From positions 1 through 64,000 of the forward strand of contig JANYCZ010000059.1 in NCBI GenBank assembly GCA_025360015.1: DNA of 64,000 bases. The letters run 5' to 3'. Below, one piece after another: positions 6,107-49,451 of this stretch (within the stretch, counting starts at the first letter, position 1; each line of letters starts with the position of its first letter). Below the pieces are notes generated by a model. That model was not told the DNA's origin. It searched no databases and worked only from the letters and a program-made list of their open reading frames with translations. The stretch comes from Verrucomicrobiota bacterium. Its GTDB lineage: Bacteria > Verrucomicrobiota > Verrucomicrobiia > Verrucomicrobiales > Verrucomicrobiaceae. A program made the translations under genes and the position numbers.

Positions 6107-9100
6107 ATGCTTACCCCTCGCCTCACCCGCCGTCTGCCCGCTTTCATCCTCGGCTGCCTGACGGCGGCGCTGCTGACCAGCCAAGTCATGGCGCAGGGCG
6201 GAGCGTTCATCAATTACACCAACGGCCAGACGTATGCGGCGGGCTACGACACCACCGGATCGATTGTCACCCTCACGCTGACCCTCGGAACGGCCACGCA
6301 GAGTGGCTTGCTCACCGGCAGCGGCAGCGTGCTCAAAGCCGACACTGGCACTCTCATCCTCTCCGCTTCCAATGATTATTCCGGCACCACCACGCTGACT
6401 GCCGGCACCCTCCAGGTGGTGGCCAGCGGGGCCATCTCTCATAGTTCCTCCGACCTCTACGTCGGGAAGCAGTCCGGCGACGTGGCCACCCTGCTCATCT
6501 CCGGCGGCAGCGTCAGCAATGCCAATGGCTATCTAGGCTACGACTCTGGCAGCAACGGCACGGCGATGGTGAGCAGCGGCACCTGGACCAACAACAGCGA
6601 TCTCACCATCGGCAATGACGGCACCGGGGTGCTCAACATCTCCGGCGGCAGCGTCAGCAACGACAACGGCATTCTGGGGGCCAGCAAAGGCAGCAGCGGC
6701 ACGGTGAATGTGAGCAGCGGCACCTGGACCAACAACAGCGATCTCACCATCGGCAATGACGGCACCGGGGTGCTGAACCTTACGGACCAAGGCAAGGTCT
6801 CCGTCAATTCTGGCAACGGCACACTGTACCTGGCGAATAGCAGCGACAGCACCGGCACGCTCAACCTCGGCACCGGCGGCACGGCCGGCATACTGAAAGC
6901 GGCCAGCGTCTCCGGTGGGGACGGCACCGCTGTGGTGAACTTCAACCACACCGGAGTCAACGTCTTCACCCCCACGCTGGGGGGTGCCCTGACGGTGAAC
7001 CAGATCGGCCCCGGCACCACCACGCTCACGGCTGGGAACACATACACCGGCAGCACCCATGTCCTGGGCGGCACGCTGTTGCTGGGCTTTTTCCCATATT
7101 CACCGTCTGCGTCAAACATTCTGCCCAGCACCACGGACCTCACCCTCGGCAGTGGCACGCTCCACGTGAGCAGCTACATCAGCATAATCTTGGTCGGCGG
7201 CGGCATTATCCAGACCGGGAACAGCTTGGCCCCCGCTTTCCAAAGCGACAGCATCATAGTCATCGGGCCTGGAGGTGGAGGTATTTACCCGAGCACCCCT
7301 ACCCAAACCGTGAACAGCTTCTCAACCGCTTTTCAAGGTGGTGGCAGCATCGTGCTGGACATGAACCGAACCTTGGTTCTCGGCACTCTCAACTCCATAG
7401 GCAAGCTCTCCGCAGTGAATTTCAACACCGCCGCCACGGGTGCGAACGGAGCCAACACAGGCAGTGGCGTCATCGTTCTCACCGGCCCGAGCGCCGGTGA
7501 CGCCATCTCTTCAGGCTTCACCGTCACCGATGCCACCGGCTTTGGTCTGGCCACGGTCGATGGCTCGGATCAGGTCATCCGCCTCACCACCACCGCGCTC
7601 CTGCCCGCCAGCGGAGCGGACGCCGGCACAGACTACCTCATCAACAACAATGCGGGAAGCAGTAGCACAGCAGGCAGTTCCTCCCTCCTCATCTCCACTT
7701 CCCAGTCCGCTCGCAGCATCACCGTGGACACCACCGCCGCCTCTGGCGTACTGAGCCTAGCCTCGGGCGTGGTGCTTGGCAGTGATGTCTGGAACTTCGG
7801 CAGCAACGGCAACGGCGGCTTCTTATTCCTGGGCTCTGGCGGCGGCAGCCACACCTTTGAGATCACGGGCAGTGACTCCGGCGCAGGCATCACCACGACC
7901 ACCGCAGGTGGCACCCTCCAGTTCAACAACTACAACGCCTCCCCTGTCACCCTCTCCACCAACATTCTGGACCACGGCACCACTAGCGTACTCTTCCACG
8001 GCCCGGGCACCACGATCCTCACTGGCACGAACATGTACAACGGGGACACCACTGTCTCCAGCGGTGTGCTTCAGGTGGCCGGCTCCGGCTCCATCACCAG
8101 CCTTGGCACCACCACCGTCGGCAGCCAGACGGGCGACAATGCCGTGCTCAACATCCTCGGCCTCGTGCAAGACTTTTCCGCCGTGGTCGGCGACGCCGCT
8201 GGCTCAACCGGCACCGTGAACGTGAATGGAAACGGAGAGTGGGACCAAAAAGACACCCTCACCGTCGGCAATTCCGGCACCGGCGTGCTGAACATTGACG
8301 GCGGCCTTGTCTCCAGCAGAGTCGGCATTCTCGGTGCCAATGCCGACTCCAGCGGCACCGTGACCGTGAGTAACTTCGGGGAGTGGGATGTCTATGGCGG
8401 TCTCTTCATCGGTCAGGACGGCACCGGCGTGCTGAACCTAACCGACGGCGGCGCTGTCTATTTGAACGGGTTTAAAAAGATTGCCGGTGGCACCGTCACC
8501 CTCGGGGCGCAGGGCACGTTGAACTTTGGCACTGGCGGAGCTACTGGCTATTTGTTGGGCACCACGACTGTGACAGGCGACAGCGGTGCCGTGGTGAACT
8601 ACGATTATAACGACTTCGGAAGATTCAAATCTCCGTCCAACCCGGTGCTGACGGGCGATCTGGCGGTGAACAAGCTCGGCGGTGGCTATCTCTTCTTCGA
8701 CCAACAAAACACCTATACCGGCGGTACCACGGTGAACGGTGGCACACTTGAACTCGATTTTTTCAGTGTCAAATCAGACATCATTTCCAGATCCTCCGCC
8801 CTGACCCTGGGCGGCGGCACACTGAGCCTCTACGCTGGAAAAGGCCCCAACAGCCAGACCCTGAACGGCCTCACCACCACCGCAGGCACCGGCAGCCAGA
8901 TCTACCTCAGCTCCAGTGTCACCCTCAATCTGGGCGCGCTCACTTCCGCAGGCAGCGGCTCTGCGCTGAACTTCGACACCTATGACGGCGGCGCGGATGG
9001 TGCCAGAGTGGGCACCGGCATCGTCTTGCTCTCCGGTCAGACCACCGGCAGCGTCATCAATCCCGGCTACACCGTCACCGACTCCACCGGCTTTGGCCTC

Positions 9101-41726: not shown

Positions 41727-42532
41727 TCGACAAGCGGCGGAAGAGAGTCCTTCACCAAAGGCTTGCCCGGAGAGACATGCCCCTTTAAATCCGTGACATG
41801 AACTTTTTTCGCCTCAGCATTCCCGCCGCTGTTTTAAGTCTTGGCGGTTGCAGCTTTTCCACCGCTCCGGAACCACCCGAGTTCAAGCTGTCAGCCGAGG
41901 CTTTGAACCAGCAATATGCCGCCAGGAGGGAGACCGAGGCCGGCCGTCTCTATGCTGGAGAGATTGCAACGGCACGAGATGATGAAGGGCGCAGAACTTA
42001 TCGTGCCACAGGTGGCGCGCTCTATGTGATCGACTCGGTGCCGCCCATTCAGGTGATGGCTCCCGAAATCACCATCACTCCCGACTTCTCTGAAACCCTT
42101 GGCAAAGCCACGGTGAAAAAGGACGACCGTCTTTACATCGCGCATGGAACCACGAAATTCCGCGTGGAGGGGACCACCCTCAAACCGGATGGCGCACACC
42201 TCATACGCCGGATCGCCGTTGAGAAAGTTCCGTTAAAAAATTCCGCAGCGGCGGAAGCCGGGGCGGCCGCAACCAGCACCACCGGGGCAGAACCGGCAGC
42301 GCCGCCTCCGCCCAAACCGGTCAATCGGAAAGCTGTTTCCGAGCCCAAGGCAAGGAAGAGCAGCCCGCCCCGTGCGGACAAGCCCAAGGAAGCGCCTGCG
42401 GTGGACCGCCCGCGCCTGCTCAATTTGATGCGAGAACCCACGGAACGCTGATTTTCAAGATGATGGGCGGAAGGGTGCCATGAGCCGATGAGGCTGACAT
42501 CGCGGCTTATTTGCGTACCGGCAAATAATCGG
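41691..42532 (+). repeat. Tandem-duplication signature: repeated 3' end of the PVC dehydrogenase gene, 802 bp apart
   Basis: 41691 gctgacatcgtggcttatttgcgtaccgggaaataatcg vs 42493 gctgacatcgcggcttatttgcgtaccggcaaataatcg. Confidence 0.85.
41798..42451 (+). CDS. Putative lipoprotein, paralog A
   Basis: Lipobox SLGGC; STAPEPPEFKLSAEALNQQYAARRETEAGRLYAGEI...ITPDFSETLGKATVKKDDRLYI; ends LLNLMREPTER. Confidence 0.7.
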   Translation: MNFFRLSIPAAVLSLGGCSFSTAPEPPEFKLSAEALNQQYAARRETEAGRLYAGEIATARDDEGRRTYRATGGALYVIDSVPPIQVMAPEITITPDFSETLGKATVKKDDRLYIAHGTTKFRVEGTTLKPDGAHLIRRIAVEKVPLKNSAAAEAGAAATSTTGAEPAAPPPPKPVNRKAVSEPKARKSSPPRADKPKEAPAVDRPRLLNLMREPTER

Positions 42533-42604
42533 CAAACATCCGATCCGTCGGTCCTGTCACATTCGCTCAATGCAGTGCCGATGACAAAGCTCCAACCTCC
42601 CTCC

Positions 42605-43342
42605 ATGATCTTCCTCCGCTTCGGCGTTCTTGCAGCCGCCATCACTCTCTGCAGTTGCAGCCTTTCCACCGCGCCCGAGCCGCCTGAGTTCAAATTGTCC
42701 GCCGCAGCTCTCGGCAAGCAGTATCGTGCGACGCGCAAGACCGGCTCGGTGAGCCTGTACGCCGGCAAAATTAAGACCTCGCGGGACGAGTGGGGGCGAG
42801 AGACTCACCTTGCCAGCGGTGGCGCGCTGCTGGTGAAGGAGACCTCGCCGCCCATTCTGGCGCTGGCTCCCAGCATCTCGATCACTCCGGAGTTTTCCGA
42901 AGTGCGCGGGCAATCCACGGTGAAGAAGAATGATCTGCTCTACCTCGGGCAGGACGAGTCCACGGCCATCCGAATCGACGGTACTGCCATCACGCCGGAA
43001 GGATCGTATCTCATTCGCGCCATCGCCGCAGCCGAAGTCGATCCACCCACGGGGATTGAACGCGCAGACGCGGTGGCCACCAGTCTCGCCTACGTCCCCA
43101 CCTTTGGCGCGAAGGAAGCCCCGGCTGCAACACCTCCGAGTGAGCCGGTGGAGGTGAAGCCAAAGACGGTTTCAAAGCCCAAGCGCAAGGCCCGGCCGAG
43201 CCCGGCCAGAAAGCCAGCTTCTGAGGTGGTCAAAGCCAGTGCTCCCCCGCCAGCGCCAGCGCCAGCGCCCAAGCCGAAGGCAGCACCTACGGTGGACCGC
43301 TCCAAGTTACTTAATTTGATGCGCGAGCCTACGGTCCGGTGA
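42605..43342 (+). CDS. Putative lipoprotein, paralog B
   Basis: STAPEPPEFKLSAAALGKQYRATRKTGSVSLYAGKI...ITPEFSEVRGQSTVKKNDLLYL; ends LLNLMREPTVR. Confidence 0.7.
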   Translation: MIFLRFGVLAAAITLCSCSLSTAPEPPEFKLSAAALGKQYRATRKTGSVSLYAGKIKTSRDEWGRETHLASGGALLVKETSPPILALAPSISITPEFSEVRGQSTVKKNDLLYLGQDESTAIRIDGTAITPEGSYLIRAIAAAEVDPPTGIERADAVATSLAYVPTFGAKEAPAATPPSEPVEVKPKTVSKPKRKARPSPARKPASEVVKASAPPPAPAPAPKPKAAPTVDRSKLLNLMREPTVR

Positions 43343-43405: not shown

Positions 43406-43605
43406 GAAACCGCACTCGGAGAGTGCGGACCACTCCACTAGGGGGACTTGCACGCCTTGGGCAGCGCGCGGTCATGCGCGATGCTGAGCATGCAATCCTC
43501 TGGGTGTTTTCGACTGCCCTGAAACCGCACTCGGAGAGTGCGGACCACTCCACGAGTTGGCCTTACCACGCCTCTGCAGCTCGCGGTCATCCGCGCTGCT
43601 GATCC
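43406..43605. repeat. Two tandem copies of a hairpin-containing repeat
   Basis: Perfect 33-bp direct repeat GAAACCGCACTCGGAGAGTGCGGACCACTCCAC at 43406-43438 and 43521-43553, with internal hairpin CCGCACTC-GGA-GAGTGCGG; following CACGCC...CAGC.CGCGGTCAT.CGCG.TGCTGA also partly conserved. Confidence 0.9.
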
Positions 43606-43616
43606 CGCCGTTCCGC

Positions 43617-44261
43617 TCAATAGGGCCAGCGGAAGGGTTCGTTGGTGATCAGTTTGCTTTTGGGGTAGGCGGCGATGCGGACCTGGTTGTGGGAGTTGCC
43701 GCTGAGGAGCCAGACGTTGGTGTCGTCTTCGGCGTGCAGGAAGCCGATGTGGCCGCTGCCGGCCTGGTCCACGGTGAGAGGCTGCATGATGCAGATGGAG
43801 CCGTAGGCGGGAACGACCGGGCGGCCCCAGCCCCACCAGTCGGAGACGCGGGCGCTGTGCTGGGGCTTGTAGCCGGAGCGCAGGACGCACCAGTTCACAA
43901 AGGCAGCGCACCAGGCGGTTTCGTCATGCAGCAGATTGCCGGCGATGCCACAGCTCTGCAAATACTCGAGGATGCGCGGGTTGTCGCCGCTGGCCCATTC
44001 CTGCACACCGACCTCCATGATGGCGATCTGCATCCAGGGCGGCGGCGCGGCAAAATCCGTCGGCGCACTCGCGGCGGGTGCATCCACAGGACCGCCCGCT
44101 CCGGCGTCGTCCACATTCACGAGCTGGCCGGGAAACAGCACCTTCCAGTTGCCCCATTCGACCAGATCAGGATTGGAAGCCTGAAATTGATCGAGCGTCA
44201 TGCCAAAGGACGCTGCGATTTTGGAGGGATTGTCGCCGGGCTGAACGGAGTATTGGGCCAT
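43617..44261 (-). CDS. LysM + TIGR02594/CHAP-like amidase (peptidoglycan hydrolase) protein
   Basis: LysM-like YSVQPGDNPSKIAASFGMTLDQFQASNPDL; catalytic-type WCAAFVNWCVLRSGYKP...GHIGFLHAEDDTNVWLLSGNSHNQVRIAAYPKSKL. Confidence 0.82.
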   Translation of the reverse strand: MAQYSVQPGDNPSKIAASFGMTLDQFQASNPDLVEWGNWKVLFPGQLVNVDDAGAGGPVDAPAASAPTDFAAPPPWMQIAIMEVGVQEWASGDNPRILEYLQSCGIAGNLLHDETAWCAAFVNWCVLRSGYKPQHSARVSDWWGWGRPVVPAYGSICIMQPLTVDQAGSGHIGFLHAEDDTNVWLLSGNSHNQVRIAAYPKSKLITNEPFRWPY

Positions 44262-44336
44262 GAGCTGACCACTGCCGTAGCAAGCTGAAGACTTCAACAA
44301 TCAAAAGCGATGGCGCGACCACGCGCACTCAGTCGC

Positions 44337-44355
44337 AGCCGCGCAAGTCGCGGCT
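44337..44355. repeat. Perfect hairpin upstream of the HUH-protein gene
   Basis: AGCCGCG-CAAGT-CGCGGCT, 7-bp stem. Confidence 0.75.
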
Positions 44356-44413
44356 CCTCGCATACTCGGGCTTCGCAGCCAACCCGTTTCGCAGGAGGTT
44401 CTCATTTCCGAGG

Positions 44414-45769
44414 TTGCCGGGGACTAACCACTATTCAGGGCCGGGGCCTGGCTTGATGCCATGCCTCCGGCCCGGTGGTCACGATGCGTTCATGATGCCG
44501 CCGCTCCCTGCATTCCTGCCGGTGCGCTGTGGCCTGCAACCTTCACGCCGTGCGCCCCCATGCCCCTTTCATGTCCTTCTGCTGCAACAACCACAACCAC
44601 CGCGACACCCTCAGCCCGGCAGGCCGGGAAGGAAGCCGGAGGCGCTTTCCCCGGCCTGCCGGGCCGGGGCTGCGGGCTTGTCTAAGCAGCATAATAGAAC
44701 ACTCACCCCACATGCCCCGGCAACGTTGCGCTGGTTCCCCGGTGCGTCGTTGATTGATATTGAGCTGCCTGCGCACCACTCGGACATACGGAAGCGCAAG
44801 CAGCAGCCCCGGGGCCGCATCAAGGAATGGAGCGCCGCCAGCCGCTCCCGTTTGAAGCACACCCTCGGCAGGCTCCAGCGCAAGGAACTGGGCCGCGCCA
44901 TGCTCGTCACCCTCACCTATCCGTTGGAGTGCCCGGCACCCGATGACCACGAAGTTTACAAGGCCCATCTGCACCGGTTCAACATGGCCTTGCGCCGCCG
45001 CTGGCCGCTCTGCTCGGGCATCTGGAAGCTGGAGTTCCAGACACGCGGCGCCGCGCATTACCACTTCATGCTCTTCGGCCTGCATGACGAACCGCTCGAA
45101 GCTCTGCACACCTGGACACGCAAGACCTGGTATCGCATCGCCCACAATGGCGACAAGCATCTGGGCGCATCATGCGAAAAGGTTGAACCGGTTAAAAGCA
45201 CCGGCGGTTCCATGGGCTATTTTGCCAAGTATATCGGCAAGGGAGATCAGACCATGCCGGGGAACTTCAGCGGCAGATACTGGGGCAAGGTCAATGCTGC
45301 ACACCTTCCCACCGCTGCTTCAAAGAGCATCGAGGTGCCGCACAAAATCGCCGCCACCATCCGCCGCATCGCTCGCAAAAAGATGCAGAGCGATGTCAAC
45401 ACCGCCTGCTGGAAGCGCTGGCTGGAGCACCGGCGCAAGGACGGGTTCCGGTTCAGCCGCTTGCAATGGGAGCGCGCCATGGGCCAGCACCACGGCGGCG
45501 CTCAGCGCATCGCCCTTTGGGAGCACGTACCCGCCGTGCGGTTCTTCGATGAGGGCGAGTGGTGGCACCTTTCCGCCCACCACCTGCGCATGCGCTACGA
45601 CCTCGACCACTTCCAGCAAATCATGAAGGACCACCCGCTGCCCAAACGCTGGCGGCTCCGCGACAATGACCGCGTCCGCCTGCTCTGCGACGCCTCCTCG
45701 TTCATCGCCGCTCTCGCTCGGCTGGACAAGCCGGAGGGGTGTTTTCTGACGTTCTCTCAAGCGGGTTGA
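44414..45769 (+). CDS. HUH-type rolling-circle replication initiator-like protein (REP_ORF2/G2P-like); true start probably internal
   Basis: Motif I AMLVTLTYP (44897-44923), motif II HYHFMLF (HUH, 45056-45076), motif III YFAKYIGK with candidate catalytic Tyr/Lys (45218-45241). The first ~100 residues are low-complexity and coincide with a long palindrome, so initiation is likely downstream. Confidence 0.75.
   Translation: MPGTNHYSGPGPGLMPCLRPGGHDAFMMPPLPAFLPVRCGLQPSRRAPPCPFHVLLLQQPQPPRHPQPGRPGRKPEALSPACRAGAAGLSKQHNRTLTPHAPATLRWFPGASLIDIELPAHHSDIRKRKQQPRGRIKEWSAASRSRLKHTLGRLQRKELGRAMLVTLTYPLECPAPDDHEVYKAHLHRFNMALRRRWPLCSGIWKLEFQTRGAAHYHFMLFGLHDEPLEALHTWTRKTWYRIAHNGDKHLGASCEKVEPVKSTGGSMGYFAKYIGKGDQTMPGNFSGRYWGKVNAAHLPTAASKSIEVPHKIAATIRRIARKKMQSDVNTACWKRWLEHRRKDGFRFSRLQWERAMGQHHGGAQRIALWEHVPAVRFFDEGEWWHLSAHHLRMRYDLDHFQQIMKDHPLPKRWRLRDNDRVRLLCDASSFIAALARLDKPEGCFLTFSQAG
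44615..44663. repeat. Perfect 14-bp GC-rich inverted repeat upstream of the HUH domain
   Basis: CCCGGCAGGCCGGG (44615-44628) and CCCGGCCTGCCGGG (44650-44663) are exact reverse complements. Confidence 0.9.
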
Positions 45770-45776
45770 CCTGGCT

Positions 45777-45793
45777 CCACCGCTTCGCGGTGG
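45777..45793 (+). terminator. Hairpin just downstream of the HUH gene, possible terminator
   Basis: CCACCGC-TTC-GCGGTGG 8 bp after the stop; no strong U-tract. Confidence 0.45.
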
Positions 45794-45891
45794 ATGGCTC
45801 GAAGACCCACCATGCCCGCGTCCGGCGGCCCATGATCAAACTCTTACCTCAAACAAGCTGGCACGTCCCGCTATTGGTTAGCGCGAGAGGG

Positions 45892-46260
45892 TCATTTTAA
45901 TTGGTTCATTTCCCTCAAAACAGTGTCCGTTAAGTCCGAAACATTGTCAAAATCGCTTATGAGCAGGTCAAAGCTGTAATCCGAATCAATCATATGGAGA
46001 CTTACGGGATAGCCTTTCTGGATGCGAAACGCTAAGTCAATGCCTGCATTTCCCGCGCCCGAAAGCGCTATGCTTTCTAAATCGTCCTTGAGTTCAACAA
46101 TTGTGCTGTCGCCGCCGTGGTCGTAGCGCCCCTTGAGGGAAGCGCCATCATCAGGCGATTCTTCGATGTTACTAATCTCACTAATTGTAGAAAAGAGTTC
46201 CCTTACTTTTTCACGGTCGAACACTTTTCCCTCGTCGATATATAGCATGAAGAAGTTCAT
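45892..46260 (-). CDS. Candidate immunity protein for the adjacent Rhs-type toxin
   Basis: 122-aa acidic protein; start ATG overlaps the toxin stop (ATGA, 46257-46260), the standard toxin-immunity order. Confidence 0.6.
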   Translation of the reverse strand: MNFFMLYIDEGKVFDREKVRELFSTISEISNIEESPDDGASLKGRYDHGGDSTIVELKDDLESIALSGAGNAGIDLAFRIQKGYPVSLHMIDSDYSFDLLISDFDNVSDLTDTVLREMNQLK

Positions 46261-47729
46261 CGAATAATAACCCGCCCGTCGAGGTTGTGCTTTTTGAGCA
46301 TATTGAGGAAGAAACTTTCGGCTGCTGGATTGTTGATGATCACTTCAACATCTCGTAGAGGATTGCCGGGGTCTGCAATAATACGCCTCATTCTGGCGAA
46401 CTCATCATCGACCTGCCCAACGATTTTAGTTCGTAAAAAATCAGGGATTTTGGAACCCGGAATGAAAGGGCTGCTTCCGGGTTTCATGATGAACTTTGCT
46501 TCTTGGATCGTCCTTCCGATTATGCCATCGACATCTAGTGTGGTGCCTCCCCCACTGACAGTGTAGTTGTATCGGCCAGTATTTGCGATTTCCCACTGTC
46601 CTGTGACTGTTGTGGTTGGAGTGTTGAATCGCCGCAATGATGCCTTAAAAATCTCCGGTGTTACACTTCCCGCCGTTACAACAGCATTTGGAACCACTCG
46701 AAACGGCTTATACAAAGGCCATCCACCGTACAAGACCGCCGGAGATCGGTTGAACTCCAGCCGCCATGTAATACGATCCAGAAGAGCAGCTGCACTGCTT
46801 GTCATGGCTCCCATAAAGCGGGGGACCTTAATTGGTGCCAACATCACAAGAACATCACCTCCAAGTTTACCTGACCCAGTGATCAAACTGTTATGATCCA
46901 CCTCAGGGTAAATCCCTTCACGAGCCCAGGTCTCGGTGCTTTCGGCATCGAAGTAAGGCTCCATAGATTCATCGCGGTCCCACCCTCTCAGAACTCTGGA
47001 AAAAGTGACGAGAAAATTCGCTATATCCTTAGGAGCTCTGGCAATAGCGCCGCCACCTCCGGCAGCAAGGTTTCCAGCTTTGTGTCCTTCAGTGCCGCTG
47101 TTATAGTCGTCTCCACCCAGCCAACTGTAGTTCGAGGAAACCCCAGGGATGCGCCCCATCCCGTTACGGCCATGGCAAACCATGGTGGGGACTCCCAGAC
47201 CGCCCATGAAGTTCATCATTTGCAGTGGTGGCAGTCCTTCTTGAATGCGCTGCCGGTTGATCGCAGCCAGCTCTTCGCCAGTGACCATCCCCAGATAATC
47301 CCAATTGTTGACCGGATCCCCATTGCAGTAGGCATAGAGGTTCATGCCAACCTGGATCCACACAATGAAGAGGTGGTTTTGGGCATCCCACTGGTACGCC
47401 ATGACCACCACAGTGGCAGGTGGCCTGGTGGGGCCTTCACTCAGGGCTCTGATGCCACGCTTCATGGCGTGGAGACCCTCGGCATCGTAGGTCAATGCCG
47501 CCCACTTTGGCGAGGTGGCCGGGCAGTCTGCATTCTCCCCGAGAGGGAACTGATTCGCCAAGTAGCAGCCGTGCGTTCGTGGGTGATGGCCGCGGTCACC
47601 GATGACCGCCTTCTGGTTACGATGGGCTGCCGCATCGTAGGCGTAGTTGCAGCGCACACCACCCCAGGCGCGGTTTCCCGCGCCAAGGAGCATCAGCAGC
47701 ATCAAGCAAGACTGGAGGATCGACCGCAT
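46257..47729 (-). CDS. Orphan Rhs-type protein: signal peptide + degenerate Rhs core remnant + C-terminal restriction-endonuclease-fold toxin (Tox-REase-like)
   Basis: Signal-like MRSILQSCLMLLMLLGAGNRAWG; Rhs signature MNLYAYCNGDPVNNWDYLGM (47286-47345); C-terminal TTLDVDGIIGRTIQEAKFIMKPGSSPFI (D...QEAK). Confidence 0.7.
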   Translation of the reverse strand: MRSILQSCLMLLMLLGAGNRAWGGVRCNYAYDAAAHRNQKAVIGDRGHHPRTHGCYLANQFPLGENADCPATSPKWAALTYDAEGLHAMKRGIRALSEGPTRPPATVVVMAYQWDAQNHLFIVWIQVGMNLYAYCNGDPVNNWDYLGMVTGEELAAINRQRIQEGLPPLQMMNFMGGLGVPTMVCHGRNGMGRIPGVSSNYSWLGGDDYNSGTEGHKAGNLAAGGGGAIARAPKDIANFLVTFSRVLRGWDRDESMEPYFDAESTETWAREGIYPEVDHNSLITGSGKLGGDVLVMLAPIKVPRFMGAMTSSAAALLDRITWRLEFNRSPAVLYGGWPLYKPFRVVPNAVVTAGSVTPEIFKASLRRFNTPTTTVTGQWEIANTGRYNYTVSGGGTTLDVDGIIGRTIQEAKFIMKPGSSPFIPGSKIPDFLRTKIVGQVDDEFARMRRIIADPGNPLRDVEVIINNPAAESFFLNMLKKHNLDGRVIIR

Positions 47730-47776
47730 TTGAAGTGCCCTTTGTAGCAGGCAGCAGCGGCTAAAGGAAGGAGGAT

Positions 47777-48000
47777 TCACCCCATTTCGCAGCTCAGGAC
47801 TTCAATGCGCCCGCAATGTCCGTCCCTGGTGGCCACGGTCAGCCCCCACTGCATCGCGCAGGCGGCGATCCACATGCCATGTCGTTGTGAGGAATGGGCT
47901 GGCCTGCGGCGGCGAGCTGCGTGCTGATCCTGCGGTAATACCCGGTGGTTGCGTCATCCACGGTGATCAGGGTGATGCCGGCGATGAACGCCTCGGAACA
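47777..48000 (-). pseudogene. VapC (PIN-domain) toxin remnant, truncated and frameshifted
   Basis: SEAFIAGITLITVDDATTGYYRRISTQLAAAGQPIPHNDM, then after a 5-nt shift at about 47873-47877, WIAACAMQWGLTVATRDGHCGRIEVLSCEMG-stop: a typical VapC C-terminus split over two frames. Confidence 0.8.
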
Positions 48001-48124
48001 TCGGAGGTGGCGGAGCGCGGGCTGACTGCGGAGCCCATGCGCGGCGGAACTGCTTGCAGACGCTGCTGGTGAACGTTGGGTGTGGCGGAGTGCCCGGTTT
48101 GCTTCCCGGCTGGTGGTCAGCCAA

Positions 48125-48187
48125 CCCAGGGGAGCCTCGCTAAGGCTTAGCACCCCTGGGCTGCATTACGCAGCCCTTTCAGGGCTG
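48125..48187. repeat. Nested palindromic repeats
   Basis: CCCAGGGG (48125-48132)/CCCCTGGG (48153-48160) enclosing GCTAAG-G-CTTAGC (48139-48151); then CAGCCCT-TTC-AGGGCTG (48171-48187). Confidence 0.88.
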
Positions 48188-48297
48188 GTGTGTGGCGGGA
48201 CGGAGCGGCGAAGAGAACACGGCCCGTGCTAGGAAATGAGAGGTTCCGTTCTCATGGAGGCAGCGAAATGCTGCATTCACCGAAGGCCCTTTAACCC

Positions 48298-48565
48298 GAC
48301 CCGTTTTCAGTTGCTCATGGCACCAGCTGAACATGCCCAATGATACCACGATTCATTGAAAACGGGTCTGCATCTCAGCCCAGCCAGGGAAAGCTTTCTG
48401 CGTGAGATCGTATTCGAGCCGGGCAGAACTCGCGCTGGCATCACTACGCGATGCGAGTGCAATGCATACGAGGGGTGTCGCTGCGCTTAACCCCTCGCTA
48501 CATGCTGGAATGGCTCCGCCATTCATCCGGCCCTATGCAGACCTGTTTTCAATTGATTGTGGTAT
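48298..48565. repeat. Three related copies of a GACCCGTTTTCA element in alternating orientation
   Basis: GACCCGTTTTCA at 48298-48309 (+); its exact reverse complement at 48357-48368; reading 48368-48343 on the minus strand, GACCCGTTTTCAATGAATCGTGGTAT matches GACCTGTTTTCAATTGATTGTGGTAT at 48540-48565. Between them are CGAGGGGT...ACCCCTCG (48469-48497) and GAATGGC-TCC-GCCATTC (48508-48524). Confidence 0.85.
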
Positions 48566-48605
48566 GAGAAGTGGACGGAAACGGCTTTGCGATGAGTGAA
48601 GGTTA

Positions 48606-48686
48606 CTTCTAAAAAGAAGGCGAGGAGACGCTCGGCGGCGGTTGGGGACCAACCGCTCTACCGGTCCAGGGCGAGCTAAAGCTCGC
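48606..48686. repeat. Three consecutive short hairpins downstream of the ABC ATPase gene
   Basis: CTTCT-AAAA-AGAAG (48606-48619), GCGGTTGG-GGA-CCAACCGC (48638-48656), GCGAGC-TAAA-GCTCGC (48671-48686). Confidence 0.8.
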
Positions 48687-48698
48687 TAGTACTTTGGC

Positions 48699-49451
48699 TC
48701 AAGCGGCGAGGCTGTAGTGGGGGCCGATGACTTTGCCGCGGAGGCGGTCGGCTTTGGCTCCGGCTTGATCGTGCTCGATGACGCCGTCCCGGAGGCGGAT
48801 GATGCGGGTGCAGCGCTGCACCATGCGCTCGTCATGGGTGACGAAGACGAGGGTCTTGCCCTGCTGATTGAGATCGTCGAAGAGATCGAGGATTTCCTTG
48901 CCGGACTTGGAGTCGAGATTGCCGGTGGCTTCGTCGGCGAGGATCACGAGGGGACTGTTGGAGAGGGCGCGGGCGATGGCGACGCGCTGCTGCTGGCCGC
49001 CGGAGAGTTCGTTGGGCTTGTGATTCAAGCGGTGCTCCAGGCCTACCTGAGTGGCGAGACGGGTGCCGGTTTCAATCATGTCGGAATCCTTCGCTCCGCC
49101 ATAGTACATGGGCACGGCGATGTTTTCGATGACGCTGAGCTGCTGGATGAGATTGTAGCTCTGGAAGATGAAGCCGAGGTTTTTGTTTCGCGCGGCGGAA
49201 AGGTCATCGTCCTCAAGATGAGCCACGTTGAGACCGCCGAGGTAGTAGTCGCCGGAGGTGGGCTGATCGAGGCAGCCGAGTACATTGAGCAGGGTGGACT
49301 TGCCGCAGCCGGAGGGGCCCATGATGCAGACATATTCGCCGGGATAGATGGAGAGAGAGACGCCCTGCAGCACGTGCTGGGTGGTCTCCCCCATCTGGTA
49401 GCTCTTGCAGATGTCCACCAGCTTGATGATGGGATCAGTGTCCGGCATCAC
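48699..49451 (-). CDS. ABC transporter ATP-binding protein (MacB/LolD-type)
   Basis: [71 protein letters not shown]. Confidence 0.93.

What the first reader, a model, noticed from the sequence alone, without database searches (positions are those of the whole stretch)
43406..48686. A ~5-kb accessory island bracketed by palindromic repeats
Between the lipoprotein paralogs and the exporter operon lie, in order: tandem hairpin repeats, a LysM/CHAP-like hydrolase, the HUH protein, an immunity/toxin pair, a VapC fossil, and >500 bp dense with palindromes. TCTCATTTCC (44400-44409) recurs inverted as GGAAATGAGA (48232-48241), and GGTT..GGGGAC.AACC-type hairpins occur near both ends (about 44413 and 48640). 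Toxin, nuclease and Rep-like genes in one repeat-bounded block suggest a defence/competition cargo island with an unconventional mobiliser.
Basis: inference. Interest (0 to 1): 0.72.

Follow-up and report, generated by a model that had tools for sequence, protein, structure and literature searches.

The report
Rhs toxin tip with HUH hairpin
The block is a composite insertion whose heart is a DNA-nicking (HUH) enzyme gene facing a Rhs toxin-immunity pair across a conserved hairpin; the same hairpin sits at the end of Rhs toxin loci in a dozen related genomes, which hints at how these interchangeable bacterial weapons move.

Summary
The island is real but drawn wrongly. The insertion is about 44305-48693: six relatives have the LysM/CHAP gene and the ABC exporter 50-95 bp apart, so the LysM/CHAP gene and the tandem hairpins lie outside it. 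The "boundary" inverted repeat is chance, and the end palindromes belong to repeats scattered over the genome. Inside lies an intact PF23343 HUH (rolling-circle Rep type) gene. Its stop codon is followed at once by a hairpin plus a conserved box ("tail", 45770-45820), then, convergently, by an immunity-like gene and a Rhs-derived orphan toxin tip. A covariance model of the tail finds 22 sites in 12 of 68 family genomes: 18 lie next to a Rhs-core gene, 20 next to a convergent small gene (known immunity families at several), and most have an HUH gene or remnant at fixed spacing on the other side. Two HUH lineages, one close to inovirus Reps, share this site. Best reading: the tail is a recombination or replication site of Rhs toxin-immunity modules, and HUH enzymes act there to circulate tips. 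The anatomy is well supported; nicking and mobility are inferred. No Rhs-HUH association was found in the held literature.

The parts
44305..48693 (.). extent of the insertion absent from relatives (edges good to a few tens of bp)
   Evidence: LysM/CHAP and ABC genes 50-95 bp apart in G002, G013, G023, G004, G011, G008; 316 bp in G001; 497 bp in G012
43617..44300 (-). LysM + CHAP gene: conserved left flank, not part of the insertion
   Evidence: Pfam PF01476/PF05257; syntenic with the exporter in relatives
44428..44478 (+). left-end hairpin of the HUH unit; homology to the G002 copy starts here
   Evidence: DNA fold z -5.6
44606..44672 (+). second hairpin in the HUH leader, conserved in G002
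   Evidence: fold z -3.35
44750..45769 (+). HUH endonuclease gene (probable TTG start 44750; frame open from 44414); motifs LVTLTYP, HYH (His103/His105), Y-x-x-K-Y (Tyr157/Lys160/Tyr161)
   Evidence: PF23343 E 1.2e-11; motifs invariant in 4 homologues; dN/dS 0.35, 0.20 in the first 230 codons
45770..45820 (+). 'tail': hairpin (45776-45794) plus conserved box GGATGGCTCGAAGACCCACCATGCCCGCG; CTYG|A at 45798-45802 resembles a rolling-circle nick site (inference)
45892..46260 (-). putative immunity gene (122 aa), convergent with HUH; stop codon 72 bp beyond the tail
   Evidence: position as in the other tail loci; no Pfam family
46257..47780 (-). Rhs-derived orphan toxin tip: signal-like N-terminus, remnant of the Rhs core (end of core motif at 47286-47351), unique C-terminus
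   Evidence: TIGR03696 residues 144-165, E 0.0024; similar mini-Rhs in L050, L170, L211
47770..48010 (-). VapC/PIN-like fossil with a frameshift
   Evidence: read in two frames; by eye only, no Pfam match
48037..48216 (+). dispersed repeat A (about 20 copies or more in the own genome)
48430..48526 (+). dispersed repeat B (about 9 copies)
48605..48665 (+). dispersed repeat C, contains GGTTGGGGACCAACC (about 12 copies)
43406..43602 (.). tandem hairpin pair with dispersed motif D (GAAACCGCACTCGGAGAGTGCGGACCACTCCAC); outside the insertion
48699..49451 (-). ABC transporter ATPase gene of the exporter operon: conserved right flank
   Evidence: PF00005; syntenic in relatives

Best explanation
The insertion carries a Rhs toxin-immunity tip joined tail-to-tail, through a conserved hairpin site, to an HUH endonuclease gene of rolling-circle Rep type. 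SHOWN: this arrangement recurs across the genus and in two further genera. The hairpin plus a 29-bp box marks the 3' end of Rhs toxin-immunity modules in a fixed orientation. PF23343 HUH genes or their remnants end a fixed distance before it (3-5, 20-23 or 57-59 bp, by lineage). INFERRED: the tail is the single-stranded DNA substrate or origin on which the HUH protein nicks, possibly at CTYG|A. Homologous recombination between duplicated Rhs cores releases a circle holding core, tip, immunity gene, tail and HUH. The HUH protein lets that circle replicate or move as single-stranded DNA. The circle re-enters another Rhs locus through core homology, or lands elsewhere as an orphan tip, as here. 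Later decay and repeat insertions produced the VapC fossil and palindromes.
For: Genome-wide tail search over 68 family genomes, blind to Rhs: 22 hits in 12 genomes, 18 beside a Rhs-core gene and 20 beside a convergent small gene. Rhs cores number only 24 in nine such genomes, so chance would give well under one. Immunity families by Pfam next to tail or HUH: SUKH-3, Imm26, Tdi1_C, Imm44. HUH remnants are on one strand only, with fixed spacing per lineage. HUH2, related to inovirus Reps (37%), shares the site with HUH1. Helix covariation: 9 double-change cells against 2.4 in shuffles, 0/500. C, T and G of CTYG invariant in 22 sites. HUH under purifying selection. Empty sites show that HUH and toxin are both absent in relatives. 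In G018 the Rhs cores flanking tip-immunity-tail-HUH are 93.6% identical over 172 bp, the geometry needed for the circle proposed by Jackson et al. 2009 (PMC2935791).
Against: No circle, excised form or nicking was observed. The HUH gene is lost or broken at most tails. G002 and G013:C76 keep HUH next to the immunity gene without a tail. Closely related HUH1c and inovirus Reps have neither tail nor toxin. The right-hand junction is not at one fixed base. The toxin-linked HUH1a and HUH1b may have a single origin, so independent recruitment rests on HUH1 versus HUH2. The window locus has no second Rhs core, so its arrival by a circle is not shown. No hit in viral contigs.
Confidence: 0.42

Rival explanations
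1. The tail is a conserved downstream element of Rhs loci, and HUH elements (like RAYT, IS66 and an intron-type reverse transcriptase) are selfish insertions that target or tolerate it. Tips are exchanged by ordinary homologous recombination between Rhs core and tail; the HUH protein plays no part in tip traffic.
For: Other mobile elements also lie left of some tails: Y1_Tnp/RAYT at L171 and L172 by Pfam and, by eye, L052, L213, L215; IS66-like and a reverse transcriptase by eye. The second conserved block of the tail persists at Rhs 3' ends without hairpin or HUH (L177-L179). Jackson et al. need only RecA-type recombination.
Against: HUH genes are always in one orientation with lineage-specific fixed spacing to the tail. 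In the window HUH and tip are both absent in relatives, so HUH did not simply join a Rhs locus ancestral to that site. The box is conserved across genera while its flanks are not.
Confidence: 0.33
2. The tail is an RNA or DNA structure serving expression (end of the toxin-immunity transcript or of the HUH transcript), unrelated to mobility.
For: It lies between convergent genes and its helix covaries.
Against: No T-run on either strand and no terminator call there. The most conserved part is the box after the stem, not the stem.
Confidence: 0.12
3. One reading: a repeat-bounded defence island that moves as one unit by an HUH transposase.
For: Empty-site alleles; HUH gene present.
Against: Boundary repeats are chance or dispersed repeats. 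The LysM/CHAP gene is core. The G002 copy shares only the HUH unit and the tail-to-tail plan, not the rest.
Confidence: 0.06
4. An insertion-prone intergenic spot collected unrelated debris, so HUH beside toxin is coincidence here.
For: G001 and G012 carry other small insertions at the same spot; the right half of the block is dispersed repeats.
Against: The same HUH-tail-immunity-toxin order recurs in many genomes and other loci.
Confidence: 0.05

Closest known systems
Rhs C-terminal tip displacement (Jackson et al. 2009, PMC2935791)
   Same: interchangeable tips, orphan tips with core remnants, tandem arrays, proposed episomal circles
   Different: [quoted passage not shown] here a Rep-type HUH gene and a conserved hairpin site do
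IS91/ISCR and Helitron rolling-circle transposons
   Same: HUH nuclease gene with a hairpin near the 3' end; DNA beyond the hairpin can be carried along (read-through shown for Helraiser, PMC4778049)
   Different: PF23343 rather than the IS91 transposase; no defined terminal motif or target; the site stays at Rhs loci after the HUH gene is lost
Inovirus G2P / rolling-circle plasmid Rep (PF23343 REP_ORF2-G2P)
   Same: same Pfam family; HUH2 is 37% identical to a Rep in a Zot-bearing prophage; weak hits to small actinobacterial plasmids
   Different: no phage or plasmid genes seen beside the toxin-linked copies; an added tail site
Integron cassettes and attC sites
   Same: variable gene modules each closed by a conserved folded site at the 3' end
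   Different: no integrase, no attC core boxes at both ends, one site per Rhs module
REP/RAYT systems
   Same: hairpin sites and HUH (Y1) nucleases; RAYT genes lie by several tails
   Different: 1-4 tails per genome, tied to toxin loci; RAYT is not always present

Membership tests
PF23343 HUH endonucleases | profile match above the curated cut-off | tested here: met
   45.2 bits against 27.8
PF23343 HUH endonucleases | HUH motif and catalytic Tyr | tested here: met
   HYH and Y-x-x-K-Y invariant in 4 homologues; activity not tested
Rhs polymorphic toxin | Rhs-associated core before a variable C-terminus | tested here: inconclusive
   window protein keeps only core positions 55-76, E 0.0024, below cut-off; at most other tail loci the core is complete
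Rhs polymorphic toxin | cognate immunity gene directly downstream | tested here: inconclusive
   small gene in the right place, no Pfam family in the window; known immunity families at L051, L053, L213, L217
IS91/ISCR transposon | IS91-type transposase | tested here: not met
   only PF23343 and a sub-threshold Phage_GPA match
IS91/ISCR transposon | insertion with defined ends and target tetranucleotide | tested here: inconclusive
   left end shared by two copies; right end varies
Integron cassette | attC core boxes and an integrase | tested here: not met
   no RYYYAAC...GTTRRRY pair closing the site (inspection); no integrase seen beside the tails annotated
Repeat-bounded genomic island | flanking direct or inverted repeats more than chance | tested here: not met
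   4 against 3.4 expected; edges show no shared repeat
Intrinsic terminator | GC stem followed by T-run | tested here: not met
   no call at the tail on either strand

The most novel reading that the evidence does not exclude
Rhs toxin tips in these bacteria circulate as rolling-circle episomes or single-stranded DNA. HUH Rep proteins taken from ssDNA phages or plasmids use the hairpin tail as their origin, so tip exchange is driven by a dedicated replicase and site rather than by chance recombination.
Probability: 0.3. Interest if true: 0.86.

Novelty: new variant of a known kind. Interest (0 to 1): 0.62.

Why it matters
How Rhs and similar polymorphic toxin tips move between loci and strains has been an open question since C-terminal displacement was described; circles were proposed without a known enzyme or site. 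A conserved hairpin site at the 3' ends of these modules, with a rolling-circle nuclease beside it, gives a concrete candidate that can be tested in a test tube and by long-read sequencing.

Tried and rejected
Boundary inverted repeat: chance. LysM/CHAP as cargo: rejected by synteny. Tail as HUH 3' UTR only: rejected, since it persists at Rhs loci after the HUH gene is lost. Tail as intrinsic terminator: rejected. attC: rejected by inspection. Tail or HUH in viral contigs: none; HUH in phage records: none; plasmids: only weak partial matches in small actinobacterial plasmids. Solved structures by sequence: none. HUH tree: a single origin of the toxin-linked HUH1 rows is not excluded. Rfam: no match. 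The pattern hit in G009 (L174) was chance. A 10-mer (CCACTATTCA) shared by the HUH left end and the G002 empty site was judged coincidence.
Full report
WHAT IS THERE. The window is part of a 6.6-Mb genome (G000:C17, 79 contigs) of a Prosthecobacter-like member of the Verrucomicrobiota: the nearest relatives retrieved by name are Prosthecobacter sp. and uncultured Verrucomicrobia. Comparison with same-genus genomes gives clean empty sites. In G002, G013, G023, G004, G011 and G008 the LysM/CHAP gene (43617-44300) is followed by the ABC exporter gene (48699-49451) after 50-95 bp; in G001 and G012 the gap is 316 and 497 bp with unrelated small insertions. The insertion in the window is therefore about 44305-48693, and the LysM/CHAP gene and the tandem hairpins at 43406-43602 lie outside it.

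INSIDE THE INSERTION, left to right: (i) an HUH unit starting with a strong hairpin at 44428, where homology with a copy in G002 begins, with a probable TTG-start gene 44750-45769. The protein matches PF23343 REP_ORF2-G2P (E 1e-11) and keeps the motifs LVTLTYP, HYH and YxxKY. Between the window and G002 it evolves under purifying selection (dN/dS 0.35; 0.20 in the first 230 codons). (ii) Directly after its stop codon, a hairpin with a conserved box, here called the tail (45770-45820). (iii) Convergent to HUH, a 122-aa immunity-like gene (45892-46260) and a 507-aa Rhs-derived orphan toxin tip (46257-47780) that keeps only the end of the Rhs core. (iv) A frameshifted VapC-like fossil and dispersed repeats A, B and C.

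THE ARRANGEMENT RECURS. The first lead was that HUH homologues in other genomes lie next to Rhs genes. A 22-base piece of the tail, searched in 48 genus genomes, landed beside Rhs genes. A covariance model built from nine tails was then run over 68 genomes of the family without regard to Rhs: 22 hits in 12 genomes and three genera. Eighteen lie beside a gene with a Rhs core or its end, and twenty beside a convergent small gene whose stop codon is close to the tail. The exceptions without any such gene are L212 (truncated tail) and L214 (weak); L051 has a SUKH-3 immunity gene and L173 an unknown small gene, without Rhs. Nine loci were fetched solely because the model pointed to them (L210-L218); seven of these carry a Rhs-core gene in the predicted place and orientation. 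Two more tails that the model found in loci already held (L185, and L049 at 9004) also close Rhs modules. Some small genes match known immunity families: SUKH-3 (L051), Imm26 (L213) and Tdi1_C (L217). Imm44 stands directly against an HUH remnant in L053. Rhs cores are rare (24 hits in nine genomes totalling about 58 Mb), so by chance far less than one of 22 sites would lie within 3 kb of one (own estimate).

THE SITE. The tail reads CTGGCTCCRCCGC-loop-GCGGYGGATGGCTYGAAGACCCACYATGCCCRSG. The stem covaries: 94% of cells pair and 9 cells have changes on both sides against 2.4 in shuffles, 0 of 500 reaching it (the alignment was fitted to the structure, which favours it). In L168, L171, L211, L216 and L217 the loop has grown into nested palindromes that fold strongly. 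The box after the stem is the most conserved part; C, T and G of C-T-Y-G are invariant in 22 sites with A following in 91%. CTTG|A is the type of nick site used by several rolling-circle Reps (own knowledge, not tested). There is no terminator-like T-run. A second conserved block further right persists even at Rhs loci where hairpin and box were not found (L177, L178, L179).

THE HUH SIDE. Upstream of the tail, always on the same strand, lies an HUH gene or what is left of it. The last codon ends 3-5 bp before the tail in the window type (HUH1a), 20-23 bp in the G018/G019 type (HUH1b) and 57-59 bp in a second, shorter type (HUH2, L171 and remnants). Eleven of 23 sites keep protein-level HUH remains; several more keep only the last codons or 3' flank (by eye). 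HUH2 also falls in PF23343, just under its cut-off, and its closest relatives here are 232-234-aa Reps in prophages with Zot (L235) and a Gp8-like coat protein (L232), i.e. inovirus-like. Relatives of HUH1 without tail or toxin sit beside a tyrosine recombinase (HUH1c in G012 and G419). Only 11 of 68 family genomes have a detectable PF23343 gene. So toxin-linked copies are one lifestyle of a family otherwise found in mobile elements, and two HUH lineages share one site. Whether HUH1a and HUH1b joined it separately is unresolved.

MECHANISM. Jackson et al. [quoted passage not shown] In G018 the tip, immunity gene, tail and HUH remnant lie between two Rhs cores 93.6% identical over 172 bp: a crossover there would release a circle holding a rolling-circle Rep gene and its adjacent hairpin. 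Helitrons show that an HUH transposase can read past a 3' hairpin and carry the DNA beyond it (PMC4778049); here the DNA beyond the hairpin is the toxin-immunity module. I therefore favour an HUH-tail system that replicates or mobilises Rhs tips (0.42), ahead of the view that the tail is only a recombination anchor or a landing pad for selfish HUH elements (0.33). Shown: anatomy, recurrence, orientation, spacing, covariation, empty sites. Inferred: nicking, circles, transfer.

LIMITS. No molecule was observed in action. Most toxin-linked HUH copies are decayed; intact ones are the window, G002 and L171. The literature searches cover only open papers, so absence of a report is weak evidence of novelty.

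Noticed in passing
L038 about 1740-2110 (G012 empty site): A MITE-like insert with 20-bp terminal inverted repeats (TTCTACTTTGGTAAGTTATC) that encloses dispersed repeat A, at the same intergenic spot as the window insertion.
   Followed up: partly
window 48037-48216, 48430-48526, 48605-48665, 43521-43555: Four dispersed palindromic repeat families (A, B, C, D) with about 20, 9, 12 and 17 further copies in the own genome.
   Followed up: partly
L171 210-1268, L172 6839-7975 (Pfam); L052 1-648, L213 5743-6900, L215 (by eye): RAYT (Y1_Tnp) genes lie beyond the tail on the toxin strand in five loci; in L052, L169 and L172 the sequence ATGCCTGGCATSTTTTTT is fused at different points of the HUH 3' region.
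   Followed up: no
window 46257-47780, L050 6751-7767, L170 2035-2490, L211 764-1747, L216 2-1060: Mini-Rhs proteins: a signal-peptide-like N-terminus joined almost directly to the end of the Rhs core and a toxin tip; a recurrent architecture that may be functional.
   Followed up: partly
L232-L235 (G249, G451, G452, G442): Inovirus-like prophages (Zot in L235, Gp8-like coat protein in L232) in the same family with PF23343 Reps.
   Followed up: partly
L218 about 7400-8800 (locus strand +): A reverse transcriptase of group II intron type (by eye) next to a tail at an Rhs locus.
   Followed up: no
L036 around 6530 and window 44428: The first ten bases of the HUH unit (CCACTATTCA) occur in the otherwise empty intergenic site of G002; target site or coincidence.
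   Followed up: no
L049 (G018:C18:125000-138522): Array of four Rhs units: two in tandem with 94% identical 638-bp core repeats, two on the other strand with HUH and tails between them, plus IS66-like genes.
   Followed up: partly
window 41798-43342: Tandem paralogous lipoprotein genes (70-75% identical segments) just left of the LysM/CHAP gene.
   Followed up: no
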